Of a stretch of 64,000 nucleotides of DNA, positions 1 to 19,450 are shown piece by piece; position 1 is the stretch's first letter; every line of letters begins with the position of its first letter. The position numbers and the translations under genes are program-made. The notes under the pieces are model-generated. The model was given only the letters and a program-made list of their open reading frames with translations. It searched no databases and was not told the DNA's origin. Origin of the DNA: a virus; IMG/VR virus record IMGVR_UViG_3300024346_010589, positions 18,064 to 82,063 of that record. One strand, 5' to 3'.

Positions 1-812
1 ACGCAGAACTCATTAAATCGACTAAAGTTCTTGAATAGAAAATTAGTCTCCTGTAGTAAATAGAAATCAACAAGAGCTTCTTTGGCTATTTTTGTCTTAC
101 CGTAAACTTCTTCTAATTTTAACTGCTCCTCCGTTGAGCCTTCTCCTATTTCGTGGCCGGTGCCGCAACCCGGAGGGGCAAAATACCTATCTATTGAAAT
201 AGTATTTGGAAATTGATCCTTGAATATATCCACGAATTTGCTCGAATCAGAAGCTATAAAAAATTTATAATCCTTGCAGGATTTCAAAAAAGCACGAGGA
301 GCGTTAAAGAGTATATCGTCGATCTTTTCTTTATAAAACAATACGGCATCCTTCATTGGGCGAGCGCCTTCAAATCGACTTTTAACTTCCCCGTTGGACA
401 TTCTGGCGTGAACCCCAACCATGTAATTACCTTTGAATTTTTCCCGCACTATATCCTTGACGGTATTAGTTACTGATTCACTGGGCTTAATTCGAGAAAA
501 CGTGTTGTAGAATAACACGGTATCCTCTTTTGATTTTAAGGGGTTTTTGATTTTTACAGTTTTATTTGTATGTTTTTCTGAATCTTTTTTTAATTGATCT
601 ATAGATTCTTCATTAGTTATAATGTTTATATCGGTATCTATAGAGCAGAAGTATTCATTAAATAGGTTTTTTTCACCTTTGCTAGACCAGTGGCCCCGCA
701 AATCTATAAGCATATCTTGCTTTGAATTCTCGCAATGAATTAATGCATTAGTTAAGTGCCATATGGTGTCGCCCCAGCCAGCATCCCAGGAGAAATAATA
801 ATACTTGCTCAT
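1..812 (-). CDS. NodZ/GT23-like fucosyltransferase, C-terminus cut by window edge
   Basis: This frame is open from an ATG at 812 to the window edge, giving 270 codons, so the end of the protein is missing. The N-terminus (SWDAGWGDTIWHLTNAL) resembles the phosphate-binding start of GT-B sugar transferases that handle GDP-fucose. Around residue 130 there is VGVHARMSNGE, close to the conserved 'GVHxRxGD' nucleotide-binding loop of NodZ/FUT8-type fucosyltransferases. It is followed by FIASDSSKFVDIFK and then an ALVDFYLLQET segment, both in the family order. The ATG overlaps the stop of the upstream sulfotransferase as ATGA, so translation is probably coupled. The window also encodes GDP-mannose dehydratase and GDP-fucose synthase, which would supply the donor sugar. 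The fucose specificity is inferred. The GT-B fold and family resemblance are moderately secure. Confidence 0.7.
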   Translation of the reverse strand, partial: MSKYYYFSWDAGWGDTIWHLTNALIHCENSKQDMLIDLRGHWSSKGEKNLFNEYFCSIDTDINIITNEESIDQLKKDSEKHTNKTVKIKNPLKSKEDTVLFYNTFSRIKPSESVTNTVKDIVREKFKGNYMVGVHARMSNGEVKSRFEGARPMKDAVLFYKEKIDDILFNAPRAFLKSCKDYKFFIASDSSKFVDIFKDQFPNTISIDRYFAPPGCGTGHEIGEGSTEEQLKLEEVYGKTKIAKEALVDFYLLQETNFLFKNFSRFNEFC

Positions 813-1609
813 AATATGATTTTCTCACTGCCATATTTATTAAACATTTCTTGATAATTTGGTATTTTACCATAGGCTTTTTTGCCGAATACTCTTCTGT
901 CTGTAGATAGGAAGTTCTCTACGTTGTTTTGATCTATTTCTATGTCTAGGTAGTTTACGATCTTGTCGAACTGAACTAATCTTTCCTCGTAGGTTGATAA
1001 GCCATAAAGATCTTCGTATTTGGAGACGATACTTTCGGGAGGAAGCAATTCGTGGTAGTGGGGTAGGTATTTTTGATACCACGCTACTCTTCTTTTGATT
1101 GGAGCCTCCTCTAGGGAGGTATAGTTAAATGAATCGACTAAACCCTTGTTCTCTTTGTTTTCTCCAAGCTGCCACACTTGAACTTGATTGGCAAGCTGCC
1201 AGGAAATAGCGGGGTAGAATGCGCTCTCCCTGTACTGGAAGATTATTTTTATTCCATGAGCTTGGCAGTAGCAGATAAAGTTTTCGTTCCCCTCTTCCGA
1301 AGAAGTACACCACACATGCTTGACCCCGTCAAATGTGCAAAATAATGAGTCTAGGAAATCCCACAGTTTATCGTTATCTTCTGCAATGTTGTTAAACTTA
1401 TTAAAGTATGGTATGTTTTTGGAGGCAGGCAAGTTGTCTGGAATCATTTTGTGTTGCTTGATAATTTCAGCATACCTAGGGTTGTGATCAAGATCTCCAG
1501 TCAACGAAGAAAGTGGCTCGTGCACAATTCTATCGTTTTTGTTGAGCGCAGAAATCAGACTAGTTGTTCCAGCCCGTTCCTGACCAAATATAACAAATTT
1601 AGAATCCAT
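809..1609 (-). CDS. Sulfotransferase-like protein
   Basis: A PAPS-dependent sulfotransferase would move a sulfo group from PAPS to a sugar or other acceptor. The N-terminus reads FVIFGQERAGTTSLISAL, which matches the 5'-phosphosulfate-binding loop of the superfamily ([QR]RSGT-type P-loop). IIFQYRESAFYPAISWQL in the middle fits the 3'-phosphate-binding strand and helix. The frame is open from a TTG at 1615, but the ATG at 1609 starts just ahead of the loop and is preferred. This leaves an 11-base overlap with the preceding gene. The stop overlaps the next start as ATGA. It is unlike the neighbouring sulfotransferase in sequence, so the two probably modify different positions. The acceptor is unknown. 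Confidence 0.72.
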   Translation of the reverse strand: MDSKFVIFGQERAGTTSLISALNKNDRIVHEPLSSLTGDLDHNPRYAEIIKQHKMIPDNLPASKNIPYFNKFNNIAEDNDKLWDFLDSLFCTFDGVKHVWCTSSEEGNENFICYCQAHGIKIIFQYRESAFYPAISWQLANQVQVWQLGENKENKGLVDSFNYTSLEEAPIKRRVAWYQKYLPHYHELLPPESIVSKYEDLYGLSTYEERLVQFDKIVNYLDIEIDQNNVENFLSTDRRVFGKKAYGKIPNYQEMFNKYGSEKIIL

Positions 1610-2285
1610 AACCAAAGTAATCTAAATCACGAACGAAATGATCTTCTATATATTCACGACTGTAATCAGAGTAGTAATCTCTGTAGCTCTTTTTCTTTTT
1701 ATATTCGGAACTGCTATTTTTTCGCCAGTCATCGAACCCGGAGGAGCTACTAAACCCAAAAACATCTTTTAATGCATAAAGGCATCCCTCTATGTTTTCC
1801 ATTTTATAAAACTTATCAATAGCAATATCTCCATTAATTTTTATGCGGTCAACATAGTTTTCGTAATATCCAGCGTGGAATTTTAGAATAGCTTTTTCTT
1901 CGTAGGCGTATTTGATAAAACCATCAAAGTCATCAGACATATAATACTGGTGAAATTTCTGAACATAAGGCATCATTGGTGATTCTATATTGTTTTCAAC
2001 AAAATAATCAAACTTCCATCCACCAAGATAAGAAAACATTGATACGACTCTATCAAATGGATTACGAACAACTGTGAACTTGAAGTAATCTTCGTAATCT
2101 GGCACGTCTTGCGCGATAGCATTAAGAGCTCTTTCGCAGGTCACGTGATATTTGTCATCATAATCCTGCTGGTTTTGGTTCTTTGCATAATCTGACTCTA
2201 TGTTAGAAAGCAAATAATGCTTTACAAAAGTTCCTGCAGACTTGGGTATGTGAACGTATATAAATTTATGTTCGTGACTATACAT
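1599..2285 (-). CDS. Sulfotransferase, Sulfotransfer_2 type
   Basis: The 228-residue protein opens with FIYVHIPKSAGTFVKHYL, the PAPS 5'-phosphosulfate loop (HIPKxAGT) of carbohydrate sulfotransferases such as heparan 2-O- and chondroitin-type enzymes. Near residue 72 comes FTVVRNPFDRVVSMFSYL, the 3'-phosphate-binding motif (VRNPxxRxxS). Both hallmark motifs are intact, so the enzyme is probably active. The expected substrate is a sugar hydroxyl on a surface or virion glycan. It overlaps the upstream glycosyltransferase gene by 8 bases and the downstream sulfotransferase by 11, which marks it as part of one translationally coupled operon. The specific acceptor cannot be read from the sequence. 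Confidence 0.85.
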   Translation of the reverse strand: MYSHEHKFIYVHIPKSAGTFVKHYLLSNIESDYAKNQNQQDYDDKYHVTCERALNAIAQDVPDYEDYFKFTVVRNPFDRVVSMFSYLGGWKFDYFVENNIESPMMPYVQKFHQYYMSDDFDGFIKYAYEEKAILKFHAGYYENYVDRIKINGDIAIDKFYKMENIEGCLYALKDVFGFSSSSGFDDWRKNSSSEYKKKKSYRDYYSDYSREYIEDHFVRDLDYFGYGF

Positions 2286-3129
2286 CGATACGATCCATTA
2301 CTTCTGGATTTTCTAGATTATCTAAAAGGAACTGCTTTCCGTCTTCCCCGCAAAGGTGACATAGATTGAACGCTTTATTGTCTTCTCCTTTTTGAAAGCA
2401 GGCTTGATAGTTCGCGTTCCAGATCCAGTCTAGAGGTTTATGTTCTTGAAGTATGTCTGTTTTTGTATATGCGTATCCGTACAGATCTTGATCGATGAAA
2501 TCTTTTCTCTCCCCCAATACTTCTAAGACTGGATTATCTATAAGTCCATGGCTCTTTAAAAAGTCAACGAAGTTATATTGATCTGGTAATACCTTGGTCA
2601 TTTTTCTTACAACTTCTCTACCCATGACATAACAACCTAAATTTAAATTGTATTTTGGTATATCTCTGTTTGTTTTTTCATTATGCCAGTATACATTTTC
2701 ATCTTCCGGTATGCTTTTTAAGTATTTCTTTAGGAAAATTTCATTCTTCTGCACAACTGCTGGGTGGAATCCGTATCCCATAACAAAATCGTTTTCCTTG
2801 TAGGCTTCAAAAATATCTGTAGCGTCTTTACTGACAACCATATCAAGATCAAGAAGCGCAAACTTATCATAGCTAGTCTTCATGAATTCATGCAAGAATA
2901 AAATCTTAATAAAGGTGCTCTTCTGGTAGAAGCTAAAGTTGTAATCATCTATTTCTTTGAATGCTGGGAAATCATTCATTGAGATAATCTTGAGGTCGCA
3001 ATTTATCTTTGATGCGTATCTCTCTAGGGACTTTAAGCAGTGTGGCACCCACGCTACATCTTGATAGCCTGGATTTGCAAAATCCGTATCAGAGGGTAGG
3101 TTGTTAATAATATATATTACGTTACTCAT
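2278..3129 (-). CDS. GT-A glycosyltransferase-like protein (GT8-like)
   Basis: The 283-residue protein starts with VIYIINNLP and a segment on a moving subject (HCLKSLERYASKINCDLKII) typical of glycosyltransferases that read a nucleotide-sugar. The key motif is KFALLDLDMVVSKDATDIFE near residue 90. DLD followed by a hydrophobic run is the DxD-type metal and nucleotide-sugar-binding site of GT-A folds, here most like GT8 and related families. A late segment with Trp, His and Cys (NLCHLCGEDGKQF) resembles the C-terminal acceptor region. It overlaps its neighbours by 8 and 4 bases. Donor and acceptor are unknown. Confidence 0.65.
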   Translation of the reverse strand: MSNVIYIINNLPSDTDFANPGYQDVAWVPHCLKSLERYASKINCDLKIISMNDFPAFKEIDDYNFSFYQKSTFIKILFLHEFMKTSYDKFALLDLDMVVSKDATDIFEAYKENDFVMGYGFHPAVVQKNEIFLKKYLKSIPEDENVYWHNEKTNRDIPKYNLNLGCYVMGREVVRKMTKVLPDQYNFVDFLKSHGLIDNPVLEVLGERKDFIDQDLYGYAYTKTDILQEHKPLDWIWNANYQACFQKGEDNKAFNLCHLCGEDGKQFLLDNLENPEVMDRIDV

Positions 3130-4055
3130 ATCATGGTTATTTCTAAATCTTCGTCAATCAAGCCCCAGTTGTCTGGGTTCGGGTTGTCTATCATTTTGTT
3201 TCTGATGTCCAGGTCGTTAGTCTTGCGCTCCCCTTCTTGTTGCGCGTGAGGCTGCGTGGTATCGTTAGATGCTCCTTCAGATCTGTCATGATTTTGATGG
3301 TAAAAATCAGCGTCAATTGATAAACATAAATTATATATATCTTCTTTTGCGGCAATACGATTAAGGAACTCTGTATCCATGCTATTCATGTAAACCAGCT
3401 TTTCATTAAACCCTTTGTTCTCAAGGTAGCATTCTCTGTCAACCATCATAACACCAACTGCACCGCCATAAAAAGGAAAAACTTCGCCGTTTGGCATCAA
3501 TCGGCTATAGTGATTATGCTCGTGACAAATATCAACCTTCCTGGATAATTGTTGATCATATATATAATCCCTAAAAACAGAGTGATGAGATTGATCTTCA
3601 CTTAAATTTCTACGACTACAAAACGCCGCCCTTGGCCAGCTCCAACCATAATCTTTAACTTCATACTCATGGTAGAACCAGTCCATAAACCTTTGACCTA
3701 TCAAGGTGTCTTGATCGATTCTCGCAAAATGTTTGCCCTCCATGTTTCTGAATCCAACATTCATTGCGTGAACCTCTGAGAATGGAGAGTCTCCCTGGTG
3801 CCTGTCAGCTATCTCAGGTGACACGGTAACTATTTTAAGTAGACCTTTAGCTTCTGGGACTAATCTAGAGGATATGGACTCCCTTAAAGAGCCGCTACGA
3901 GAGCACCAATCAACCAGTAGGACTTCGGATTGATCAACAACATTATTCTTTGCAATGATTTCACAGGCATGATTAACTGTGTTGACACAACGGCCAACCG
4001 AATCACCATTATAATTATCATTTCTAGAAACTAATACGTAAGATATTCTTTTCAT
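3126..4055 (-). CDS. GT2-like glycosyltransferase
   Basis: The N-terminus MKRISYVLVSRNDNY is a typical GT-A start (a beta strand followed by a short loop that binds the nucleotide). VLLVDWCSR continues the fold, and HFARIDQDTLIGQRFMDWF near residue 110 supplies the DxD-like site (DQD). FPFYGGAVGVMMVDRECY and the following GFNEKLVYMNSMDTEFLNRI match the acceptor-side motif (an ED-like pair on a helix) of GT2/GT27-like enzymes. The gene has ATGA overlaps on both sides within the glycan cassette. The substrate is unknown. Confidence 0.7.
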   Translation of the reverse strand: MKRISYVLVSRNDNYNGDSVGRCVNTVNHACEIIAKNNVVDQSEVLLVDWCSRSGSLRESISSRLVPEAKGLLKIVTVSPEIADRHQGDSPFSEVHAMNVGFRNMEGKHFARIDQDTLIGQRFMDWFYHEYEVKDYGWSWPRAAFCSRRNLSEDQSHHSVFRDYIYDQQLSRKVDICHEHNHYSRLMPNGEVFPFYGGAVGVMMVDRECYLENKGFNEKLVYMNSMDTEFLNRIAAKEDIYNLCLSIDADFYHQNHDRSEGASNDTTQPHAQQEGERKTNDLDIRNKMIDNPNPDNWGLIDEDLEITMI

Positions 4056-4693
4056 GATCCTGGGACTAATCTTTTAGAGTTAAAACAGAAAACGCGATTT
4101 TGATTAGGCACTGTAACTTGTATACCTCCAATTTCTTTTAACATGTTCATGTGCATAGATCCTGGAGTGGATACGTGCTTTTCAAGATGCTTTAAGCAGT
4201 GAAAATTTATACTATTTCTGTATTGTTTATCTATGTTGTGATTGTATGTATTTGGAACTATGTAAAAAATCTTATTCATCCAGTTAAACGCATCATTTAA
4301 TTTTAAAAGAATATCTTCCGAGTCGGTGACCACAAAGAAATTAGCCTTTCTCGCATTGATTTGAACTTTATTCATTTGCGCGATATAAACATTAATGTCA
4401 CTAACTTTGTCGGCCTCGAGAATAACTCCCCAAGTATGCTCAGTAATCCTTTTATTGATTCTTATTATTTCTTCGATAGCTGTTTCTGGCATAGAGCTAA
4501 GGCTATGAATTTCGTTTTCAAATTTGTAAGATTTGTATTCCATTGTTAGTTCTTTTATTTTGTGTTGTTCAGTGTAGTATTTAAGTGATTGTTCGTAGTT
4601 TAATTCTCTATCTAGGTATTTTAATATTTGAAGGCTTTTATTTTCGTATGCTGTTTTAGCTTTATTTAGTTTTTTTTTAAAATAAGATATCAT
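4052..4693 (-). CDS. Unknown protein in glycan cassette
   Basis: I do not recognise this 213-residue protein. The N-terminal 60 residues are strongly basic and helical (KKKLNKAKTAYENKSLQ), while the rest looks like a compact alpha/beta domain with hydrophobic strands (GVILEAD, FFVVTDS, IFYIVPN). No signal peptide, membrane span or clear catalytic motif is visible. It sits in the overlapping run of glycosyltransferase and sulfotransferase genes (ATGA at its 3' end, TAATG at its 5' end), so a role linked to glycan assembly is the simplest guess. That rests only on position. Confidence 0.6.
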   Translation of the reverse strand: MISYFKKKLNKAKTAYENKSLQILKYLDRELNYEQSLKYYTEQHKIKELTMEYKSYKFENEIHSLSSMPETAIEEIIRINKRITEHTWGVILEADKVSDINVYIAQMNKVQINARKANFFVVTDSEDILLKLNDAFNWMNKIFYIVPNTYNHNIDKQYRNSINFHCLKHLEKHVSTPGSMHMNMLKEIGGIQVTVPNQNRVFCFNSKRLVPGS

Positions 4694-5829: not shown

Positions 5830-6843
5830 TTAAAAGTCGTCTTCTAGTGAGCCGCTTTGTTGATACTCGCGGACTCTTCTTTCGAAGAAATTACCCATCG
5901 CCTGCACATCAACAACCTCTCCTAGCCAAGGGAATGGGTTTTTATCGCTAGGGAACCTGTAGTCTAATCCTATAGCTTCTAAGCGTCTATTACCAATGTA
6001 ATGCATATAGTCCACGAACATGTCTGCATTCAACCCAAGTATTCCGGTGGGAAGAACATCTTTTGCATAAGCAATTTCAAGGTCAACTGCTTTTTTAATG
6101 TGTTCAATGAATTCCTCTTGAATTTCTTTAGTCCAAATAGAGGGGTTTTGATCAATTAAAGTATTGATGAGATAAGTTCCAAATGCAATGTGAGAGCTTT
6201 CGTCCCTCAATGTATATTTAATCTGATCAGAAACACCCTGTAATTTATTTTGACGACCAAGCGCAAGAAGCATAGCAAATCCACTAAAGAAAAAAGTACC
6301 TTCGCATATAATCCAGTAGGTCAAGAAGTTTCTTAATATAGCCTGCTTGCCCTCAATGCTAGTTGAGTTGAAGTCATTAGAACTAATATCGTCAGTAATC
6401 TGCATCAAGAAGTCATCCTTAGCTTTAATGCTTGGAACATTTTGATAGGCCGCATAGACCTCGTCAATTTCTAAATCAAGACTATCGCATATGTATACAA
6501 CAGTTAGGTTGTGAAGACTTTCTTCAAAAGCTTGACGCAATATATACTGGCGACACTCAGCGTCTGTAATATAACGAAAAGCGGACAAAAGCAAATTATT
6601 GCCAACCAAAGACTCACTTCCTGCAAAAAATCCAAGACATCGTTTGACAAGTAATTTTTCATCTTCTGTAATTTCATTGTTTTTCCATTGAGCTATATCG
6701 TTTTGCATAGATATTTCAGTGGGCATCCAGTTATTTGCACAGCTTTTAAGGAATAAGTCCCATGCATATTTATGTTTATGGGGCAATATTCTGTTTACCC
6801 CGGCGATATTGTCTGTTAAAAGTTCTCCTGTTTTATCTTTCAT
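5830..6843 (-). CDS. nrdB: Ribonucleotide reductase small subunit, class Ic-like
   Basis: NrdB houses the di-metal cofactor that starts the radical needed by NrdA to reduce ribonucleotides. The six metal ligands can be placed at E77 (GSESLVGNN), E108 and H111 (FEESLHNL), E181 (ICEGTFF) and E215/H218 (RDESSHIAFG). The residue four after H111, where class Ia/Ib enzymes keep the radical tyrosine, is V115. All ligand positions differ from the numbering of Chlamydia trachomatis R2 (E89, E120, H123, F127, E193, E227, H230) by exactly 12, which indicates a gap-free match to the class Ic, Mn/Fe type. The acidic C-terminus with a nearby Tyr (REYQQ...LEDDF) fits docking to NrdA. A sigma70-like promoter lies 40 bases upstream. 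nrdA is about 2.2 kb away with other genes between, so the two genes are transcribed from separate promoters. Confidence 0.95.
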   Translation of the reverse strand: MKDKTGELLTDNIAGVNRILPHKHKYAWDLFLKSCANNWMPTEISMQNDIAQWKNNEITEDEKLLVKRCLGFFAGSESLVGNNLLLSAFRYITDAECRQYILRQAFEESLHNLTVVYICDSLDLEIDEVYAAYQNVPSIKAKDDFLMQITDDISSNDFNSTSIEGKQAILRNFLTYWIICEGTFFFSGFAMLLALGRQNKLQGVSDQIKYTLRDESSHIAFGTYLINTLIDQNPSIWTKEIQEEFIEHIKKAVDLEIAYAKDVLPTGILGLNADMFVDYMHYIGNRRLEAIGLDYRFPSDKNPFPWLGEVVDVQAMGNFFERRVREYQQSGSLEDDF

Positions 6844-7246: not shown

Positions 7247-7564
7247 TTATAAATTGTCTGATATTTTTTTGAGTCTAGTTATTATGTAGTTTAGGTTTAG
7301 TGCATTTATTCTATCTACAACTATATCTCCTTTTTTGGGATGGATTAATGCGCCAGACTCCAGCTCCCCCTCGTGGAGAACATAGGAGATGAAATCATGA
7401 GCGCCGTTATTCTTCAACCAATTCCAGTACATAGATCTTGTACCCATCTTGCAGGAAAGCAGTACGTTTTCAAAATGAAACACTTTACTATACATAGTCA
7501 CGTCCCTGAAACAGGATATCTCGCTGGGTGGTTCGGATAGAGTTGAATCTATGATTAAATTCAT
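7247..7564 (-). CDS. Unknown 105-residue protein
   Basis: I do not recognise this protein. It is a soluble-looking domain of about 105 residues with two Cys and one conserved-looking Trp pair (MYWNWLKNNG), beginning MNLIIDSTL and ending with a basic amphipathic helix (IITRLKKI). Its ATG overlaps the stop of the papain-like peptidase gene by one base (TAATG), and its own stop is followed at once by the start of the spanin candidate. The three genes therefore form a translationally coupled set, which suggests a shared lysis or membrane-related function. Confidence 0.6.
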   Translation of the reverse strand: MNLIIDSTLSEPPSEISCFRDVTMYSKVFHFENVLLSCKMGTRSMYWNWLKNNGAHDFISYVLHEGELESGALIHPKKGDIVVDRINALNLNYIITRLKKISDNL

Positions 7565-8670
7565 TAACTAGAGGATATGATCAATGCCAGAATCACAACT
7601 ATTGCGCAAATTATCAATGGTATGTTTTTGCTTTTCTTGGGTTCTGGTTCTACAGGCTCTGGTTCTGGTTCGACAGGCTCTGGTTCTGGTTCTATGGGCT
7701 CTGGTTCAACAGGCTCTGGTTCAACAGGCTCTGGTTCAACAGGCTCTGGCTCTGGTTCTATGGGCTCTGGTTCAACAGGCTCTGGTTCAACAGGCTCTGG
7801 TTCTGGTTCGGGGTCAATTGGTTTTGGGTTAACAAACCCATCCGAAAACTCTACATAGTAAGGGCCAATAGAGTTCATGATAGAGGACTTAAATAAGGAA
7901 TCCTCCATAAAAAAGTAGCCAGAGTTTCCAAAAAATAAACCCCAACTGTTTTGAAATTCCCAGTAAAGCTTGTCGTTTATATACTTCCAACCAATGAGGC
8001 ATACCGCATGGCCACCTGCAACCTCTGATGCTAGGTATTTTTCTGTATCAACAATGCCGTCATAGCCAATGGAAAAAAAGTAATCCCTGACTTTGAATGC
8101 ATACCAAAGTGGCCGGTCAATCACCATCCTTTTAATCTCTTCTGTTTCAGAGCAGGGTATAACGTGGTAGGAGCTAATCTTTTTGAGTCCAGCGTCTTCT
8201 TTTGCTCCTTCTTTGGGGTTACTGGATTCGCTATCTATATATGGCCAAAAGCTTTCAAAGCAGCAACCTTCGTTTATTAATGCGTTAGCAGCACCCCTGA
8301 TTGATGTTCCTGAGTAATCTTCACCGGCCCATGGGTCGTATTTTTTAGCGGTCTTGTATATCCACATAGGGCTTGGCTCTTCGTTCTTGAACGCACTAGC
8401 CGAACCAAGAACAACCCTTCCGCTGTGGCCCACGCATGAACCTATTGACCCTTGGTTAGCGACGCTTACGCATAGTGATCTTCTGGAGAATTCCTTACTG
8501 TTGACACTTTCGGATTTTAAATACTCAGAGACGTGAACCCAATCTCTTTTATCTGCAGGATGTTCAGAAACATTTAATTTTTTTTCTGAAAATTTATTCT
8601 TTTTAACGTATTTAGATACTGGATTGTCTAGTAATAAGGACGCTATCGATTGTATTAGTTTTTTTCTCAT
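7564..8670 (-). CDS. Papain-like (C1A) cysteine peptidase with EP-rich stalk and C-terminal membrane anchor
   Basis: The catalytic triad of a C1A peptidase is readable: C79 in VANQGSIGSCVGHS, His near 220 in GGHAVCLIGW, and Asn near 240 in QNSWGLFFGNSGYF. The Gln of the oxyanion hole precedes the Cys as in papain. From about residue 284 to 345 the chain is a (E-P)n/VEPEP repeat that should form a stiff extended rod, as in TonB. The last 20 residues (NIPLIICAIVVILALIISSS) form a membrane anchor. No N-terminal signal is evident. Tail anchoring with a rigid spacer would hold the peptidase away from a membrane. Its job could be host-protein cleavage, lysis or maturation of a virion protein. Substrates are unknown. 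Confidence 0.85.
   Translation of the reverse strand: MRKKLIQSIASLLLDNPVSKYVKKNKFSEKKLNVSEHPADKRDWVHVSEYLKSESVNSKEFSRRSLCVSVANQGSIGSCVGHSGRVVLGSASAFKNEEPSPMWIYKTAKKYDPWAGEDYSGTSIRGAANALINEGCCFESFWPYIDSESSNPKEGAKEDAGLKKISSYHVIPCSETEEIKRMVIDRPLWYAFKVRDYFFSIGYDGIVDTEKYLASEVAGGHAVCLIGWKYINDKLYWEFQNSWGLFFGNSGYFFMEDSLFKSSIMNSIGPYYVEFSDGFVNPKPIDPEPEPEPVEPEPVEPEPIEPEPEPVEPEPVEPEPVEPEPIEPEPEPVEPEPEPVEPEPKKSKNIPLIICAIVVILALIISSS
7640..7821 (-). repeat. Tandem repeat encoding the EP-rich stalk
   Basis: Short units built from GAACCAGAGCC-type sequence recur many times with a core period of 18 bases (VEPEPx) and variants. The repeat lies entirely inside the peptidase gene and encodes its rod. Such repeats expand and contract easily, so stalk length probably varies between relatives. 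Confidence 0.9.
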
Positions 8671-8696: not shown

Positions 8697-9119
8697 TTAT
8701 ATACCATCTAAGAGGTTAACTATGTTGGGATCTATCAAGTCTTGGAAGTTTACTAGCTCGTTGATTTTAAACCAACCAAACTCACTATGTTCTTGGCATA
8801 ACTGTGGAACCACTATTTTATTGGACCTATGTATATGAAAGTAAAAATCACAATATTCATCTCTTATTACATCGATAAACTCAATAAATTTAAAGTCTAC
8901 AAATATTTTTGACTCTTCCAGTAATTCTCTTCCAGCGCACTCAATTGGAGTTTCGCCTTCATCTATTGATCCACCGAACACAGACCAGTAACCTCCGTAA
9001 GGATATGACTTTCCGGTAACATAGCACTTTTCTGACCTCTTGGCTAATAGTACCGAATTTTCAAATAGTACAGCAACGCCAGAAGCTCTTCTATTGGCAG
9101 CTTTCACATTCTCCACCAT
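8697..9119 (-). CDS. Nudix hydrolase
   Basis: Nudix enzymes split nucleoside diphosphates linked to another moiety. The box is nearly complete: GSIDEGE, then seven residues, then RELLEES, giving the G-x5-E-x7-R-E-U-x-E-E pattern with the metal-binding glutamates present. The final Gly of the box is replaced by Lys. The surrounding fold (GVAVLFENSVLLAKRSE before it, EFGWFKINEL after it) is typical of 140-residue Nudix proteins. The gene overlaps the 3' end of nrdA by 29 bases, so it is co-transcribed with the reductase. Likely roles are clean-up of dNTPs or turnover of nucleotide-sugars made nearby. The substrate cannot be fixed. Confidence 0.9.
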   Translation of the reverse strand: MVENVKAANRRASGVAVLFENSVLLAKRSEKCYVTGKSYPYGGYWSVFGGSIDEGETPIECAGRELLEESKIFVDFKFIEFIDVIRDEYCDFYFHIHRSNKIVVPQLCQEHSEFGWFKINELVNFQDLIDPNIVNLLDGI

Positions 9120-11559
9120 TCTTCATCGCTTCAATACTGCAGGCGGTTTGAGAGCTAGAAGAATTTGAATCTTCGGAGGTCGACTTCTCTACCTTACTGG
9201 CGGCCCTATTCCTTAAATAGTACGTTGTCTTTAGTCCTGATTTCCAGCACTCCATATAAATGTCATTTAAGTACTTCAAGGACGTTGAGTTGTTGTATAA
9301 ATTAAAGCTAATTGCTTGGTCGAGCCATTTTTGCCTAGCTGCGTTGCATTCTATTAACTTGAACATATCCCTGTCAAAGGCGGTTTTGTATTTTTCCTTT
9401 ATCCACTGTGGGATATCGCCATTAAGTAAAGAAAGATCTCCATCAACATCCTTGACTAGCTTTGCCACCTCGGGACTCCACAAGCCTTCGTCTTTCATGT
9501 CATCAATAAAATGCTGGTTAGTGATAAAGAAGTTGCCGCTTTTATTTTCATAAACAAAGAGTACGGAAAAGTTGGGCTCAATGCTTTGCTCTACTCCGTT
9601 AATATAACCTATGGTTGCAGTTGGCGCAATAGCCATAACATTAGAGTTTCTCATACCGAATTCAGAAACATGTCGCCTTGAGATCTCCCACTCGTCTTTC
9701 TTGGTTTCACCATTACCAGATGGCGTTTGGCCCTTGTAGGACATTAGGTTATTGTAGGAATCAATTGGGAAAATATTTTGACTCCATAGTGAGCCTTCAT
9801 AAGTTTCATAGGATCCTCTTTCCTTAGCCAGTATGGAGCTAGCGTATATGGATTGGCAAGAATAAAACTCAAACAATTCATCATTGAATTTAATAGATTC
9901 ATCGCTATCAATATTAATATTTAATTTATGAAGCACGTCGTGTATCGCCATCATGCCTAGACCTATAGGGCGATTTTTCAGATTTGAGTTAGCAGCTTCC
10001 TTTGTTGGATAAAAGTTGATATCAATAACATTATCAAGCATTCTTACAGCTGTATGTATTGTTGATTTCAGTTTATCGTAATTAACAAAATAACCAGACT
10101 TGCCGTGCGTGGACTTCTCCTCCACATGGTTGAGTAGATTTATTGATCCTAAGTTGCATACAGCAGTCTCTCCAATTTCAGTCTTCTCGCCGGATTTATA
10201 TTTAGAGGCTTTAGTGTGGAGTGTTATTTCTGTGCATAGATTACTACTATGGACAACTCCTTCATGCTGATTGGTGTATCTTATATTGCACGGATCCTTG
10301 AAGGTACACCAAGGATGTGATGTCTCAAATAATACCTTGAGCATTTTTTTCCACAACTCTTTTGCTGGGGTTTTTCTGAAGTTTTTAACATTTCCGTCTT
10401 CTGCTGATTGGCACATTGCGTTATACTTATTGTCAAAGTCTTCGCCGAAGGAATCATGTAGACTTACTTCACTATCAATGAGCTTTTCGTTTGGGTCAAA
10501 GAAATACCAATCTTCATTAGCTTCAACTTTCCTCATAAAGATATCTGGAATCCATGAAGCAGTATTCATATCGTGACACCTAAGTCTATCGTCACCAGTA
10601 TTTCTTCTTAAGTTTAAGAAGTCCTCAAAGTCTAAATGCCAAGGTTCTAGGTATGCGCAACCTGCACCTGGGCGCTTTCCGCCTTGGTTTACGGCAACCA
10701 GCAAGTCGTTGTAAATTTTCAACCATGGAATTAAACCTCCAGAAGTTCCATTTGTTCCCTTGATGTGGGAGCCTGAAGACCTAAATGGAGTTACATCAAA
10801 ACCTAAACCACCAGCAAACTTGGATTTTCTAGCTTCTTGCCAGGCCCCATCAAATATACCATCAATACTATCATCAAAAGTATTAAGGTAACAAGAGCTA
10901 AGCTGTGAGTGTGTTGTACCGCTGTTGAATAGTGTGGGAGTAGAGGCTGTGTATAAAAATTGACTGAACAGATTGTAGAACTCTATTGCTTTTTCGTTTT
11001 TATCTTCTTCGTTGATGGCTAGACCCATTGCAACTCTCATCCAGAAAGCTTGAGGAGTTTCCATTATTTTCTTTTCACTTCTTATGAAGTAACGATCAAA
11101 TAGTATCTGGATTCCTAAGTATTTAAACTTCTTGTCTCTGTCTATCTTTAGCGCCTCTGAGAGTTTAGCAAAATCAAATCCAAGTAATCTTTCGTCTAGC
11201 ATTTCCTGCTTTACTAATTTTTTAATGTTCTGTATGAAGCTTTTTCTATATTGTGACTGGAAAGCTTCTGAGTCAACCCCCTCTTTGAATACTTCTTTGT
11301 ATAAGCAGTTTAATAGTAAACCTGCAGCAGCGTAAGAATAGTTTGGCTCTTTTTCTATTTTTTCTCTAGCAGATAAAACCAAAGCTTTGTCTATTTCGAT
11401 AGTAGTTATTTTATCAAATAATTGCAACTGTGCATCTAGTACTATCTCGCTTGGAGAAACGTTGTCTATGTCACTGCACGCTCTTAATGCGCTGGCGTTT
11501 ATTTTATCTACTTCAAATTCTTCTAGGCGGCCGTTTCTTTTCTTAACTTTAATATTCAT
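9091..11559 (-). CDS. nrdA: Ribonucleotide reductase large subunit, class I
   Basis: This is the catalytic subunit that converts ribonucleoside diphosphates to deoxy forms. An ATP-cone starts the protein (IKVKKRNGRLEEFEVDKI). The redox and radical cysteines are visible: SQLSSCYL near residue 222, NLCTEI near 440 (the thiyl radical Cys with the active-site Asn and Glu) and AVCNLGSINL near 465. TTYYLRNRA supplies the tyrosine pair of the radical path, and the tail ends with a C-x2-C redox pair (GGECESCQ). The length of 822 fits class I alpha subunits. It has its own promoter and partners the NrdB encoded downstream. The stop is TAG, inside the start of the Nudix gene. Confidence 0.97.
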   Translation of the reverse strand: MNIKVKKRNGRLEEFEVDKINASALRACSDIDNVSPSEIVLDAQLQLFDKITTIEIDKALVLSAREKIEKEPNYSYAAAGLLLNCLYKEVFKEGVDSEAFQSQYRKSFIQNIKKLVKQEMLDERLLGFDFAKLSEALKIDRDKKFKYLGIQILFDRYFIRSEKKIMETPQAFWMRVAMGLAINEEDKNEKAIEFYNLFSQFLYTASTPTLFNSGTTHSQLSSCYLNTFDDSIDGIFDGAWQEARKSKFAGGLGFDVTPFRSSGSHIKGTNGTSGGLIPWLKIYNDLLVAVNQGGKRPGAGCAYLEPWHLDFEDFLNLRRNTGDDRLRCHDMNTASWIPDIFMRKVEANEDWYFFDPNEKLIDSEVSLHDSFGEDFDNKYNAMCQSAEDGNVKNFRKTPAKELWKKMLKVLFETSHPWCTFKDPCNIRYTNQHEGVVHSSNLCTEITLHTKASKYKSGEKTEIGETAVCNLGSINLLNHVEEKSTHGKSGYFVNYDKLKSTIHTAVRMLDNVIDINFYPTKEAANSNLKNRPIGLGMMAIHDVLHKLNINIDSDESIKFNDELFEFYSCQSIYASSILAKERGSYETYEGSLWSQNIFPIDSYNNLMSYKGQTPSGNGETKKDEWEISRRHVSEFGMRNSNVMAIAPTATIGYINGVEQSIEPNFSVLFVYENKSGNFFITNQHFIDDMKDEGLWSPEVAKLVKDVDGDLSLLNGDIPQWIKEKYKTAFDRDMFKLIECNAARQKWLDQAISFNLYNNSTSLKYLNDIYMECWKSGLKTTYYLRNRAASKVEKSTSEDSNSSSSQTACSIEAMKNGGECESCQ

Positions 11560-11731: not shown

Positions 11732-12589
11732 TTATGAATCGCTATTGTCTACGGCAGAAGTTGAGTTTCCCCAGTCCAGGTCTTTTCTTACGTCTAGATT
11801 AACTGACCATGCTGATTTTAAAAGTTTCGCATCTAACCCATTTTTCTCAAAGGTGGATATTAATGCATTAATGTCTTTTGGAAAGCATGTGCCGCCAAAA
11901 CCTTTGTCTCCGTCGTGACCGGGAACTTGATAGTGGGACTCACCTATTCTTTTGTCGCTAATAACTCCATTAATAATAGAGTCCCAATCTAATCCAAGTT
12001 TATCAATCAGCAAGTGTATCTCATTGAAAAAACTAACCTTGGTAGCAAAGAAACAATTAGCGATATACTTTACAGATTCAGACTCAACGCTTTTCATTAT
12101 AAGGCATGGCACATCAGGGAAATTGTATTTGAATAAGCCAGCAGCTTCCTGTGCGACGTGCTGGTATTTAGTGTAGCCTATTATGTGCCTATCTGCATTA
12201 ATGAAATCTTCTTTTGCTAATTTAGCGGTAAGAAATTCTGGGGAATGGATTATATGTAATTCCGGATGCGCTTCCTGTAGGCTGTCGGTTGTCCCAATTG
12301 GAACAGTTGATTTTATTATGAAGGTGGCGTTAGATCCAATAGATTTAATTTCGCTAAAGCAGGATTCTATAATTGATAGATTGCAGTCATCTCCCATAAC
12401 ATCCCTCATTGGTGTTGGGACGCATATGAAAACAAAGTCCTGAAGTATTACATCTCTAAGCGAGTGAGTCGAGGAGTTTGGATTTTTATCATACACCTTT
12501 ACTTCTTCGGACGAAAATCCGTTGGCGACTGCAGAACCAACGAAGCCATTCCCTATAACTCCGATTTTAATTTGGTCTGTTCTTTTCAA
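11732..12589 (-). CDS. Short UDP-glucose/GDP-mannose dehydrogenase-type protein
   Basis: The protein belongs to the NAD-dependent family that oxidises C6 of a nucleotide-sugar to a uronic acid. The Rossmann start is IGVIGNGFVGSAVA, with FVFICVPTP and TFIIKSTVPIGTT following in family order. The central helical domain has the catalytic cysteine in GFGGTCFPKD near residue 240. At 285 residues it stops soon after, so the C-terminal nucleotide-sugar-binding Rossmann domain of the usual 390-450-residue enzymes is absent. It may act as a reduced enzyme or pair with another subunit. The start appears to be TTG at 12589, overlapping the upstream gene by 23 bases, because the family N-terminus begins within a few residues of it. 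Confidence 0.85.
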   Translation of the reverse strand: MKRTDQIKIGVIGNGFVGSAVANGFSSEEVKVYDKNPNSSTHSLRDVILQDFVFICVPTPMRDVMGDDCNLSIIESCFSEIKSIGSNATFIIKSTVPIGTTDSLQEAHPELHIIHSPEFLTAKLAKEDFINADRHIIGYTKYQHVAQEAAGLFKYNFPDVPCLIMKSVESESVKYIANCFFATKVSFFNEIHLLIDKLGLDWDSIINGVISDKRIGESHYQVPGHDGDKGFGGTCFPKDINALISTFEKNGLDAKLLKSAWSVNLDVRKDLDWGNSTSAVDNSDS

Positions 12590-13478
12590 TCCAATCTTCT
12601 ATTTTACGAGATGGATTCCATCCGAGCATAGTTTTAGCCTTAGTGTTGTCTGCAAGAGTTTCTCTTGACTCTCCTGGTCTTGCCGGGATATGAACGTGCT
12701 CACCTCCAGTTAATTTAACCAAGTCTAAGACTGAATGATTTGTGCCAGTTCCGAGGTTGAAAAGCTCTCCCACGATTTTCTTGTCATGCGATTCTCCAGC
12801 CAGAAACATCGCCTCGACTATGTCTTTGACATGAGTGTAGTCTCTAGTTTGAAGGCCATCTCCGACAACAGTCATTGCTTCGCCCGATTCTTTTTGCCTA
12901 AAGAATAAGCCGACAACTGGCGCGTAATCTCCAGCTAAAGGCTGACGCTCGCCATAGACGTTAAAGAATCTAAATAGAACAGTTTGTAGCCCAAAAAGTT
13001 TTGTATACATTTTGCAAAGCTCTTCACAGTTAGACTTGCTTACAGAATATGGGTTTAAGCAATCATTCGGCATATCCTCTCTTAGGGGAATTGGGTTTTT
13101 GAGCCCATAGCAAGAAGATGTTCCTGCGAACATTACTTTTTTGCAATCATTTAATCTTGCGGCCTGAAGAACGTTGCAGGTTCCTAGTGAGTTGTTCTTG
13201 ACAGCATCAGCTGGATCCTGTACGCAAATTTGTATCCTGGACCTAGCAGCTAAATGAAAAACCAAGTCAACACCCTTGAAGAGTGGATTAAGTTTCTCAA
13301 AATCACAGATATCTACTTTGTGGTTTTCGCAATCATCTCTCCATGTGAAATTAGAATTTGCTGTGGAGGATTCATCATCAACCACGATAACATCGTGTCC
13401 GGCTTTAAGTAATCTTTCAACAAGATGGCCGCCAATAAATCCGGCACCACCTGTAACTAAACATTTTTTCTTTGACAT
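12567..13478 (-). CDS. NAD-dependent nucleotide-sugar epimerase/dehydratase (extended SDR)
   Basis: LVTGGAGFIGGHLVERLL is the NAD-binding G-x2-G-x2-G signature of extended SDR enzymes such as GalE, UDP-xylose synthase and RmlB. FHLAARSRI and GTSSCYG follow, and the catalytic Tyr-x3-Lys is in NPYSVSKSNCE. FRFFNVYGERQ and DYTHVKDIVEA match the substrate-binding half. The 303-residue length is typical. Sequence alone does not separate a 4-epimerase from a decarboxylase or dehydratase. It sits between the dehydrogenase and GDP-fucose synthase genes, so action on the UDP-uronic acid made by its neighbour is plausible. Confidence 0.85.
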   Translation of the reverse strand: MSKKKCLVTGGAGFIGGHLVERLLKAGHDVIVVDDESSTANSNFTWRDDCENHKVDICDFEKLNPLFKGVDLVFHLAARSRIQICVQDPADAVKNNSLGTCNVLQAARLNDCKKVMFAGTSSCYGLKNPIPLREDMPNDCLNPYSVSKSNCEELCKMYTKLFGLQTVLFRFFNVYGERQPLAGDYAPVVGLFFRQKESGEAMTVVGDGLQTRDYTHVKDIVEAMFLAGESHDKKIVGELFNLGTGTNHSVLDLVKLTGGEHVHIPARPGESRETLADNTKAKTMLGWNPSRKIEDWIEKNRPN

Positions 13479-13486
13479 AATTAATG

Positions 13487-14452
13487 TTACACTTGATCGC
13501 AGTCAATATTTAAATTTTCTAGATACCATTTGTATGTTTTAACTATCCCATCCTTTAATGTGACTTTTGGCGAAAATCCTTTTGATTTAATTCTTGTGTT
13601 GTCCATTTTTTTTCTAAAAGTTCCGTCCGGCTTAGAGCTGTCAAATACTATTTCTCCATCATAGCCGATTGCGTCTTTGATCAAATGCACTAATTCTAAT
13701 ATCGTAACCTCGTGTTCTGATCCACAATTTATATGGGAAACGCCATCGCTATATATGTCCTCTGCGTTTATGTTCTCCATGCAATGGATAACGCCATCAG
13801 CCAAATCTTCGACATATAAAAATTCACGTAGGGGCTTGCCAGATCCCCATACTTCTATTGATTTATCGCCTTTTTCTTTTGCGCAATGTATTTTGTTTAT
13901 TAAAGCAGGCAGGACATGCGAACTCTTTAGATCAAAATTATCCCTAGGGCCGTATAGATTGCACGGCATTACCGAGTAAAAGTTGCAACCATATTGATCG
14001 TAGAAGCTTTCGCACATTTTGAGCGCCGCTATTTTAGCTATAGCATAGGGCTCATTGGTATGTTCGAGTGGACCGGTTAACAAGTATTCTTCTTTAATTG
14101 GTATGTCTGCATGCTTTGGATATATGCATGAAGAACCTAAGTTGATTAACTTCCTGACTCCGAACTTTTGCGCAGCCTTTATTATTGTTGATGAAATTTG
14201 TAAATTATCATAAAGGAAGTCTGCTCTGTATGTATTGTTGGCCAGAATTCCGCCAACTTTAGCCGCGCAAAGAATTACTGTGTCAATTTTTTCATCCCTA
14301 AAGAAGTCCAAAACCTTATGTTTATTCATTAGGTTCATCTCTTGCCTGGTTCTTGTTACAATATTGGAATAGTTTGAGCGTTGAAGCTTGCCAAGTATAG
14401 AAGAACCGACCATTCCGCGATGGCCAGCTATGAATATTTTTTCTTGCTTCAC
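13487..14452 (-). CDS. fcl: GDP-L-fucose synthase
   Basis: The enzyme epimerises and reduces GDP-4-keto-6-deoxymannose to GDP-L-fucose using NADPH. Family hallmarks are clear: IFIAGHRGMVGSSI (cofactor loop), CAAKVGGILANNTYRADF, LGSSCIYPK with the catalytic Ser and Cys, and YAIAKIAALKMCE with the Tyr-x3-Lys pair. SVMPCNLYGPRDNFD and GSGKPLREFLYVEDLAD complete it. The length (321) is standard. It begins with GTG at 14452, and that GTG overlaps the stop of gmd as GTGA, so the two consecutive pathway steps are translationally coupled. Confidence 0.95.
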   Translation of the reverse strand: MKQEKIFIAGHRGMVGSSILGKLQRSNYSNIVTRTRQEMNLMNKHKVLDFFRDEKIDTVILCAAKVGGILANNTYRADFLYDNLQISSTIIKAAQKFGVRKLINLGSSCIYPKHADIPIKEEYLLTGPLEHTNEPYAIAKIAALKMCESFYDQYGCNFYSVMPCNLYGPRDNFDLKSSHVLPALINKIHCAKEKGDKSIEVWGSGKPLREFLYVEDLADGVIHCMENINAEDIYSDGVSHINCGSEHEVTILELVHLIKDAIGYDGEIVFDSSKPDGTFRKKMDNTRIKSKGFSPKVTLKDGIVKTYKWYLENLNIDCDQV

Positions 14453-15480
14453 TTAGACAATAACGAATAATCGTTATGGTACATCTTAGAGACAAGCCCA
14501 AAGAAGTCTACTTTCCTGACCCAGCCAAGTTCCTTTTCAGCAAGAGAGCAGTCTCCGCAAAGCTTGTGGACTTCAGCTGGCCTGTAGTATTTTGAGCTAA
14601 CCTCAAAGAATAACTTACCCTTTTTTGTGTAAAATTTTTCATTATCATCTTGGCCCTCAGAGTAGAAATCTATTTCTGCGAACTCTAAAGTCTTGGTTAG
14701 GAATTCTCTTACAGTGTGCATTTCCCCGCTACCCAATACGTAATTCTTAGGCTTGTCTTGGTTGAGCATGATCCACACTCCAGACATAAAATCTTCGGCA
14801 TCACTCCAGTCTCTCTTGGCGTCAAGGTTGCCTAGTTGAAGAATAGGTATATCTTTTCCATTTTCTAGAGCAATTTTAATTTTTGCTATACTGTGGCTGA
14901 TTTTTCTGGTTACAAAGTCAAGGCCTCGACGAGTGCCTTCATGATTAAATAGCCAACCCTGTACTGCGTATAAATTGTAAGACTCCCTGTAGACCCTGAC
15001 AATGTGCCTGGCCGCGCACTTGGCGGCACCATAGGGAGATTGTGGTCTTAGTGGGTGGTTCTCATCTTGAGGAACACACACTACATCTCCGAATTCTTCA
15101 GATGATCCAGCATTATAAAATCTGCATTCCGGAGCAAATCTTCTTATGGATTCCATGATATGCAGAACCGCATCAGCATCAGTATCCCATGTCTGGATTG
15201 GGTAATCCCAGCTTCCAGCTACGAAAGATTGAGCTGCAAAATTAATAAAATAGTCTGGCTTAATGTCTAGTATTACATCCCGAATGCTGTGCGCATCATT
15301 GAGGTCCATATTGATTAGCTCAAATCTAGGATTGTCTTCTAGGTGCAAGATATTCTCGTGGTTTTTAACGCTCAGCCTACGTACCGAACCATAAATTTTA
15401 TGATCAGTGTTCTTTAATAAATAGTCAGCCATGTGACTTCCGTCTTGACCTGTTACTCCTGTTATAATTATTTTTTTCAT
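14449..15480 (-). CDS. gmd: GDP-mannose 4,6-dehydratase
   Basis: This enzyme makes GDP-4-keto-6-deoxy-D-mannose, the branch point to GDP-fucose, GDP-rhamnose and GDP-perosamine. IITGVTGQDGSHMADYLL is the characteristic GMD start, followed by NFAAQSFVAGSWDYP, AGSSEEFGDV (Ser and Glu of the catalytic set) and SPYGAAKCAARH (Tyr-x3-Lys). NHEGTRRGLDFVTRKI and LGNLDAKRDWSDAEDFM are also family-specific. The length of 343 is standard. The gene lies upstream of fcl in the same operon, and the aminotransferase gene just before it could use the same intermediate. Confidence 0.96.
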   Translation of the reverse strand: MKKIIITGVTGQDGSHMADYLLKNTDHKIYGSVRRLSVKNHENILHLEDNPRFELINMDLNDAHSIRDVILDIKPDYFINFAAQSFVAGSWDYPIQTWDTDADAVLHIMESIRRFAPECRFYNAGSSEEFGDVVCVPQDENHPLRPQSPYGAAKCAARHIVRVYRESYNLYAVQGWLFNHEGTRRGLDFVTRKISHSIAKIKIALENGKDIPILQLGNLDAKRDWSDAEDFMSGVWIMLNQDKPKNYVLGSGEMHTVREFLTKTLEFAEIDFYSEGQDDNEKFYTKKGKLFFEVSSKYYRPAEVHKLCGDCSLAEKELGWVRKVDFFGLVSKMYHNDYSLLSK

Positions 15481-15483
15481 AAA

Positions 15484-15792
15484 TTAATATGTTTTGTGCT
15501 TTCTTTGTATGAATTTTACTGAATCTAATTCTTCTCCCGCCATATACGAATGAATTATTTCAATGATTTTTTCGTCAACTTCATCTATTAGCTGATTTCT
15601 TTGAACATTCAGGTCGCAGCACTTCTTTAAAGATTGCCATAAGTTCTCTGCGCCTTCTTTATTGTCGAAGTATTTTTCCTTGTACTCATCAAAGGACATG
15701 CGCCTAATTTCATAAAGTAATTCTTGGTTATTCCACATTTTTAAATCAACCGTGGAGAGTTTATCTATTAATGATCCTAGTGTATCTGACAT
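15484..15792 (-). CDS. Small helical protein of the sugar operon
   Basis: The 102-residue protein is all helical by eye. It begins TLGSLIDKLSTVDLKMW and carries a second conserved-looking helix with LKKCCDLNVQRNQLIDEVDE. Its first motif resembles the VGELFDRISVLEVKRI start of the DUF6165 protein encoded at 25982-26389, so the two may be distant relatives. I recall similar small proteins beside nucleotide-sugar genes in other phages, but I cannot assign a function. It lies four bases before gmd and is presumably co-expressed. Confidence 0.6.
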   Translation of the reverse strand: MSDTLGSLIDKLSTVDLKMWNNQELLYEIRRMSFDEYKEKYFDNKEGAENLWQSLKKCCDLNVQRNQLIDEVDEKIIEIIHSYMAGEELDSVKFIQRKHKTY

Positions 15793-15808
15793 AGTTGTTG
15801 TTGAGTTA

Positions 15809-16921
15809 TTAGATTAAATCGTTTTTATCTGCCCAGTTTTGGAAAACTAAAGAATTGTATGCAATAATTCTATCACAAATTTCATCAATCTCTTCGTTTT
15901 TTAAAAAAATATGAGAAGGGAATACGGCAATTTGATTTTGCAATATATCTGAATTAGTGTGGGAACCCTTTAGGGATAAGTGTGTGTGTTTATCGTAAGA
16001 ATAAAACATAGGTCTAGTCTCAATATTGTTAGATTTAAAAAAATGACTAGATTTAGCAAATGATTTAGCGCAATGAAACCTAACCCCAATCATCCACATT
16101 GAATGATCGCAGCCATCTTCCGCCGATTGCAGCGATAGGAAGGTTTGATTTTTTAAGTTTTGCGAATAACGATCAAATACCCTTTTCTTTTCGCTATATA
16201 TGTATTCATATTCTTCTAGTTGGCCTAGTAGTAAACCAGCTTGAATGTTGGTCATTCTGTAGTTATAGCCTAATTCGTCATGGATGTATCTGGTTGATGT
16301 TTGGCCTTGACCATGAATCTTGAGGGCAAATTCATAAACATCCTTCTCGTTAGTTAAGAATGCTCCTCCTTCTCCGCTAGTTATATTTTTATTTCCAAAA
16401 AACGAAAGAGACGAGCAAAAACTCTTTGATCCAGAAGGGTTACCTTCATATTTACCAAAAAAACCTTCGCAATTATCTTCAATAATCGGAGAATTGTGAT
16501 TTTTTAATAACTTTGGAACATTTATAATCCCCCCGAGATTATGAACGGCCATGATTGCTGAATTTTTATTTAATTTTATTTTATCAATTGACATATTCCA
16601 TGTGTCAATGTCTAGGTCGATGGCAACAATGTTTTTGTAACCTTCATAGATTAAAGAATTGTATGCTGCGATATAACAAGCGCTTGGAACTAAAACCTCA
16701 TCAATATTTGGGAAAAATTTCTTTAAAGATATAGCGGTAAGGTGAGTAGCTGAGGTTCCACTGTTTACAGGGAGTGCATATTTTACTCCAAGTTTTTCGC
16801 CTAAAAGTCTTGAGCTTTTTTCTGGATAATCACCTAGGGAAGAAATCCAACCGCTATCAATAGCTTCTTTGGCGTACTCTAAGCTTTTCCTGGGTAGATA
16901 GGGCTCGTAGATTTTATGCAT
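15809..16921 (-). CDS. DegT/DnrJ/EryC1/StrS aminotransferase (sugar aminotransferase)
   Basis: PLP-dependent enzymes of this family aminate keto-sugar nucleotides. The chain shows the family order: an N-terminal loop (AIDSGWISSLGDYPE), the cofactor contact NSGTSATHLTAISL, a D-x-D region (IIEDNCEGFFG) and the PLP lysine near residue 179 in SFFGNKNITSGEGGAFL. LGYNYRMTNIQAGL is the conserved C-terminal signature. The closest functional class, given gmd in the same operon, is GDP-perosamine synthase, which uses the GMD product with glutamate as the amino donor. That specificity is an inference from context. The stop and start of this gene and the GNAT gene overlap by eight bases. Confidence 0.9.
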   Translation of the reverse strand: MHKIYEPYLPRKSLEYAKEAIDSGWISSLGDYPEKSSRLLGEKLGVKYALPVNSGTSATHLTAISLKKFFPNIDEVLVPSACYIAAYNSLIYEGYKNIVAIDLDIDTWNMSIDKIKLNKNSAIMAVHNLGGIINVPKLLKNHNSPIIEDNCEGFFGKYEGNPSGSKSFCSSLSFFGNKNITSGEGGAFLTNEKDVYEFALKIHGQGQTSTRYIHDELGYNYRMTNIQAGLLLGQLEEYEYIYSEKKRVFDRYSQNLKNQTFLSLQSAEDGCDHSMWMIGVRFHCAKSFAKSSHFFKSNNIETRPMFYSYDKHTHLSLKGSHTNSDILQNQIAVFPSHIFLKNEEIDEICDRIIAYNSLVFQNWADKNDLI

Positions 16922-17330
16922 AACTTTTCTTCATATAAATAATAATAGAATTAGATTTAATAATTTCAAATCCAAATTTTAAATATAATTTTTGCCCCGC
17001 TATATTAGCTGTGTCAACCGATAGATATATATCCTCAGATGAATCTTCTAGGAGTTCTCTCATTATTTTTTTTCCAAAACCCTTTCCGGTGAAATCTTTA
17101 AGTAATGCAATTCCTAACCATATTTTTTTATCAGATCGGTCTCTGTCTAAATGACCGTAACCTATGGGCTTCGAGTGATCAACCAATAAAATGGTTTTCT
17201 CATGATTTGGTAAGCAAGAATCTAAATCCCTAGACTCAAAGTAACGAAACGTGTTAGAAGAAGCACCCAGTTTGGATATAAAAATTTTTAATAAAGAAGT
17301 GTCCCTGGTGTCTACATGCGTGAAGTTCAT
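16914..17330 (-). CDS. GNAT-family N-acetyltransferase
   Basis: The acetyl-CoA-binding motif is WLGIALLKDFTGKGFGKKIM (the R/Q-x2-G-x-G/A loop, here TGKGFG). It is followed by IYLSVDTANIAGQKLYLKFGF, the typical motif B with the Asn and the catalytic-region Tyr. The 138-residue size is that of a single GNAT domain. It overlaps the sugar aminotransferase gene, so acetylation of the amino sugar produced there, for example to an N-acetylperosamine-type sugar, is the natural hypothesis. Other amines cannot be excluded. Confidence 0.85.
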   Translation of the reverse strand: MNFTHVDTRDTSLLKIFISKLGASSNTFRYFESRDLDSCLPNHEKTILLVDHSKPIGYGHLDRDRSDKKIWLGIALLKDFTGKGFGKKIMRELLEDSSEDIYLSVDTANIAGQKLYLKFGFEIIKSNSIIIYMKKSYA

Positions 17331-17336
17331 AAAAAA

Positions 17337-18305: not shown

Positions 18306-18318
18306 ATCAAGTTAAGAG

Positions 18319-19446: not shown

Positions 19447-19450
19447 TGTA

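What the first reader, a model, noticed from the sequence alone, without database searches (positions are those of the whole stretch)
5830..6843. NrdB without the radical tyrosine, matching class Ic (Mn/Fe) ligand spacing
All six metal ligands are present, but H+4 is V115 where class Ia/Ib enzymes have Tyr. Each ligand lies exactly 12 positions before its counterpart in Chlamydia trachomatis R2 (E89, E120, H123, E193, E227, H230), and V115 matches F127. Class Ic enzymes are known to use a Mn/Fe site and to have Phe, Leu or Val here. A phage-borne class Ic enzyme would give dNTP synthesis that resists radical scavengers and differs in metal need from a usual host enzyme.
Basis: partly seen in the sequence, partly recalled or inferred. 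Interest (0 to 1): 0.8.

Follow-up and report, generated by a model that had tools for sequence, protein, structure and literature searches.

The report
Viral ribonucleotide reductase lacking radical tyrosine

Summary
The gene lies on the minus strand (6843..5830) and encodes a 337-aa NrdB. E77, E108, H111, E181, E215 and H218 align without gaps to the Chlamydia trachomatis ligands, and V115 aligns to F127. Y117 aligns to Tyr129, which Tyr-radical relatives also keep, so it is not a displaced radical tyrosine.

Further evidence supports a Tyr-less, class Ic-like enzyme. Its first ligand is Glu: in 262 aligned R2 proteins every non-Tyr protein has Glu, and all but two Tyr proteins (with the class Id pairing) have Asp. 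Relay residues and a complete NrdA partner are present. All 139 fetched members of its viral clade keep the site, always with Val (122) or Ile (17).

Trees put the clade on a long stem beside cellular NrdABz. NrdA data reject grouping it with Tyr-type NrdABz (p 0.0005); NrdB data only disfavour that (p 0.085). It differs from cellular relatives at about 18 otherwise conserved positions.

A February 2026 preprint (PMC12918982) already reports a marine viral 'subclass Ic-like' clade with Ile/Val here, nearest NrdAz; this is almost certainly that clade. Mn/Fe content and scavenger resistance remain untested inferences. Real, interesting, mostly known.

The parts
5830..6843 (-). nrdB (R2, beta subunit), 337 aa, Tyr-less, class Ic-like
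6499..6501 (-). codon GTT of V115, position of the radical tyrosine (Ct F127, E. coli Y122)
6613..6615 (-). codon of E77, first metal ligand; Glu as in class Ic, Asp in Tyr-type NrdBz
   Evidence: PMC4118035
6511..6522 (-). E108 and H111 (E-x-x-H ligand motif 1)
6301..6303 (-). E181, metal ligand
6190..6201 (-). E215 and H218 (E-x-x-H ligand motif 2)
5863..5865 (-). Y327, C-terminal radical-transfer tyrosine (Ct Y338, E. coli Y356); ten residues follow it
9091..11559 (-). nrdA (R1, alpha subunit), 822 aa, one ATP-cone; C223, C442, C468, Y780/Y781 and C-terminal CESCQ present
8697..9119 (-). Nudix hydrolase overlapping the end of nrdA, between nrdA and nrdB; not conserved across the clade

Best explanation
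The gene is the beta subunit of a complete, very probably functional, phage-encoded class I ribonucleotide reductase of the NrdABz family that lacks the radical tyrosine. It most likely works like the C. trachomatis class Ic enzyme: a dinuclear metal site, probably Mn/Fe, is oxidised by O2 and itself stores the oxidising equivalent, which passes via W39 and Y327 to Y781/Y780 and C442 of the phage's own alpha subunit. The virus belongs to a marine clade already reported in a 2026 preprint as 'subclass Ic-like'. Shown here by sequence: family, lack of Tyr, Ic-type ligands, relay residues, intact partner, purifying selection. Inferred: metal identity, activation by O2, activity.
For: Best sequence and fold matches are C. 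trachomatis class Ic R2, then S. erythraea R2 6y2n, also Phe. First ligand/position 115 pairing: E/V 122, E/I 17, E/F 35, E/L 1, D/Y 85, E/Y 2, and no Asp with a non-Tyr. T114 also matches the Phe-type state (T in 33 of 36 Phe/Leu-type, A in 70 of 77 Tyr-type). W39, Y210, D214, Y327 and all ligands are identical in 139 of 139 members. Strong constraint: differences at codon positions 1/2/3 are 2383/735/9768 over 61 loci. NrdA has all catalytic residues and was found beside nrdB in 112 of 140 loci, many loci being cut short. NrdA tree: V/I clade monophyletic (SH-aLRT 100), union with Tyr-type rejected, p-AU 0.0005. NrdB tree: V/I clade 100/100.
Against: The residue is Val/Ile, not the Phe/Leu of Ic reference proteins. 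The clade sits on a long stem, and about 18 positions near-invariant in both cellular groups differ, among them (Ct numbering) T87G, A88S, A121S, T124N, H125L, I223T and N232A/K. In the NrdB tree union with the Tyr-type clade is disfavoured but not rejected (p-AU 0.085). There are no metal or activity data.
Confidence: 0.72

Rival explanations
1. A Tyr-less, metal-oxidant NrdB whose native cofactor is not Mn/Fe but for instance Mn2 (as in class Id) or Fe2, so that the clade is a subclass of its own that only resembles Ic.
For: Val/Ile unlike Ic references (PMC12918982); changed site neighbourhood and long stem; the V/I clade branches outside cellular Phe-type and Tyr-type NrdA when rooted on L091/L092. 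Four Glu and two His do not by themselves fix the metal (PMC4118035).
Against: First-ligand Glu and T114 shared with class Ic; best matches are Ic; class Id enzymes keep the Tyr (PMC8463856), this one does not.
Confidence: 0.17
2. A class Ia-type enzyme that lost its Tyr recently and is degenerate, or uses another Tyr such as Y117.
For: The closest isolate-phage NrdB proteins (Pseudomonas vB_PpuM phages) have Tyr; Y117 is near.
Against: Val/Ile in 139 of 139 members with strong purifying selection; Glu rather than Asp first ligand; Y117 is present together with the radical Tyr in Tyr-type relatives; NrdA tree rejects union with Tyr-type.
Confidence: 0.05
3. Not a reductase subunit but an R2-like ligand-binding oxidase (R2lox).
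For: R2lox also uses a Mn/Fe site with six similar ligands (PMC4118035).
Against: R2lox models score 72.7 bits or less against cut-offs of 194 or more, while NrdB PRK07209 scores 451 over 309; C-terminal relay Tyr327 and an nrdA partner are present.
Confidence: 0.01

Closest known systems
Marine viral 'subclass Ic-like' RNR clade (PMC12918982, bioRxiv Feb 2026)
   Same: Marine viruses; beta with Ile or Val at the radical-Tyr position; alpha closest to NrdAz, in a clade without cellular references.
   Different: No difference found. The text read does not analyse the Glu/Asp pairing, relay residues or a beta tree.
Class Ic RNR of Chlamydia trachomatis (NrdBzc; PDB 1syy, 4m1i)
   Same: Family, fold, six ligands with Glu first, no radical Tyr, residues matching W51, Y222, D226, Y338.
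   Different: Val/Ile instead of Phe; about 51% identity; changed second-sphere positions; alpha has one ATP-cone where two cellular Phe-type alphas (L181, L187) show two matches each.
Tyr-type NrdBz (Acinetobacter; Pseudomonas phages vB_PpuM-*)
   Same: Same family, 42-44% identity.
   Different: Tyr at position 115 and Asp as first ligand.
Cyano SP / class O cyanophage RNR (PMC6370689, PMC9531940)
   Same: Phage-borne and Tyr-less.
   Different: Class O beta ends just after the C-terminal Tyr; here ten residues follow. Cyano SP beta branched away from Ic in PMC6370689.

Membership tests
Class Ic (NrdBzc) | No Tyr at the radical position: Phe, Leu or Val (PMC6370689); Phe or Leu in references (PMC12918982) | tested here: met
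   V115; meets the wider definition, not the narrower Phe/Leu one
Class Ic (NrdBzc) | Six ligands with Glu as the first | tested here: met
   E77 and cross-table
Class Ic (NrdBzc) | Phylogenetic grouping with NrdBzc rather than Tyr-type | tested here: inconclusive
   Outside the Tyr-type clade; union rejected for NrdA (p 0.0005), not for NrdB (p 0.085); not shown nested inside Phe-type either
Class Ic (NrdBzc) | Mn(IV)/Fe(III) cofactor | not testable with these tools
   needs purified protein
Viral 'Ic-like' clade of PMC12918982 | Marine virus, Ile/Val at the position, alpha nearest NrdAz | tested here: inconclusive
   139 viral beta with V/I; alpha over the PRK07207 cut-off and ending CExCQ as in cellular relatives. 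Fits the description; no direct comparison with the preprint's sequences was possible
Class Ia/Ib | Radical Tyr with Asp first ligand | tested here: not met
Class Id | Tyr/Glu pairing | tested here: not met
   Val/Glu, PMC8463856
Class Ie | Carboxylate ligands lost | tested here: not met
   all four Glu present
Class O / Cyano SP | Beta ends just after the C-terminal Tyr (PMC9531940) | tested here: not met
   Y327 followed by ten residues
R2lox | Scores over R2lox cut-offs | tested here: not met
   72.7 bits against 194

The most novel reading that the evidence does not exclude
The Val/Ile clade is a separate metal-oxidant subclass: its changed second sphere supports a cofactor or activation route different from chlamydial Mn/Fe, used only by viruses.
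Probability: 0.18. Interest if true: 0.7.

Novelty: new member of a known kind. Interest (0 to 1): 0.42.

Why it matters
If the site is Mn/Fe, many marine phages would replicate with a reductase whose metal need differs from most Fe-tyrosyl enzymes, which bears on phage ecology in iron-poor water. The clade is also a natural test of what sets the cofactor: Phe, Val, Ile and Tyr at one position of one family, tied to Glu or Asp at the first ligand.

Tried and rejected
Y117 as the radical Tyr: rejected, it is Ct Tyr129 and coexists with the radical Tyr in relatives. 'Acinetobacter phage MD-2021a' as a phage relative: its neighbourhood (rstAB, LysR, TetR genes) looks chromosomal and its NrdB has Tyr. 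First tree with distant outgroups: saturated branches, replaced (then 51 and 55). ATP-cone residue comparison with E. coli (H59 to D57) was dropped: cellular NrdAz cones do not align in register. A conserved neighbour such as NrdI or a ferredoxin: none seen among the recurring neighbour families in 140 loci, judged by eye from sequence starts. Host: not found; UvsX and the tail-fibre protein are far from any isolate.

Full report
Observation. The ORF is on the minus strand, 6843 to 5830. The window is part of an 82-kb IMG/VR virus contig with a single R2 gene. The six ligands and V115 are as stated, and the alignment to C. trachomatis R2 is free of gaps across all of them.

Family. NCBIfam PRK07209 scores well over its cut-off, Pfam Ribonuc_red_sm likewise. 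The nearest solved proteins are C. trachomatis R2 (382 bits) and Saccharopolyspora erythraea R2 6y2n (361 bits; identity of 6y2n from PMC7467353), both Phe at this position; all others score under 135 bits. An AlphaFold model from 30 relatives (pLDDT 79) has only C. trachomatis and then 6y2n entries as its top 14 fold matches.

Breadth. Scans of IMG/VR found 176 relatives with the window protein and 314 with a family profile; the best were fetched. Of 262 aligned R2 proteins, 139 form the window's group with Val (122) or Ile (17), 35 have Phe, 1 Leu and 87 Tyr. The first ligand is Glu in every Val, Ile, Phe and Leu protein and Asp in 85 of the 87 Tyr proteins; the two exceptions (L095, L260) carry the Tyr/Glu pairing of class Id (pairing rule in PMC8463856 and PMC4118035). 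No isolate phage in INPHARED comes nearer than 45%, and the nearest have Tyr.

Phylogeny. With the two trait columns removed, the V/I clade is supported 100/100 and sits on a long stem outside the clade (99/92) that holds Tyr-type NrdBz plus the actinobacterial-type Phe proteins. Forcing it together with the Tyr-type is 19.6 log units worse, p-AU 0.085. For NrdA the same forcing is 60.5 units worse, p-AU 0.0005. So the clade looks like a deep lineage next to cellular NrdABz rather than a recent Tyr loss; whether it is nested inside class Ic is open.

Function. NrdA (9091-11559) keeps the catalytic and radical-transfer residues and the terminal CExCQ, with one ATP-cone where two cellular Phe-type NrdA proteins gave two matches each. 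All ten key NrdB residues are identical in 139 of 139 members, and third codon positions carry most differences. The enzyme is therefore very probably active. Metal-based oxidant storage is inferred from the missing Tyr; Mn/Fe is inferred from class Ic.

Difference. About 18 positions near-constant in both Phe-type and Tyr-type NrdBz are changed in this clade, several beside ligands. This is the main reason to keep open a cofactor other than Mn/Fe.

Known status. PMC12918982 reports 269 marine viral alpha sequences nearest NrdAz, with beta having isoleucine or valine, named 'subclass Ic-like', and no true class Ic in GOV 2.0. This matches the present clade. PMC6370689 earlier described Tyr-less cyanophage beta subunits of another lineage.

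Noticed in passing
L089, L090, L114 (IMG/VR contigs of 74, 176 and 436 kb): A second viral lineage carries a Phe/Glu (canonical class Ic pattern) NrdB with NrdA, beside SbcC-like, phrog_28378 (CTP-synthase-like start) and RNA-ligase genes; the two larger contigs have UvsX-like genes. The preprint found no class Ic in GOV 2.0.
   Followed up: partly
48627-60728 (-): Tape-measure protein of 4033 aa, implying an exceptionally long siphovirus-type tail (about 0.6 micrometre by the usual 1.5 angstrom per residue rule, from memory).
   Followed up: no
7564-8670 (-): Papain-family peptidase with C-terminal EPEPEPVEP repeats lying between nrdA and nrdB; found in only 6 of 80 near relatives' loci.
   Followed up: partly
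809-4693, 11732-20329, 21526-22611, 24078-25985 and L264: Dense run of genes that look like glycosyltransferases, sugar-nucleotide enzymes and sulfotransferases (mostly by eye, not by search).
   Followed up: no
L082 (CAKLQH020000007.1): Record named 'Acinetobacter phage MD-2021a' looks like bacterial chromosome around nrdAB (rstAB, LysR, TetR genes).
   Followed up: partly
28330-31641 (-) and L264:1526-2362 (-): The C-terminal part of the 1103-aa protein and the 278-aa protein in L264 share a nearly identical domain of about 220 residues, a duplicated module.
   Followed up: no
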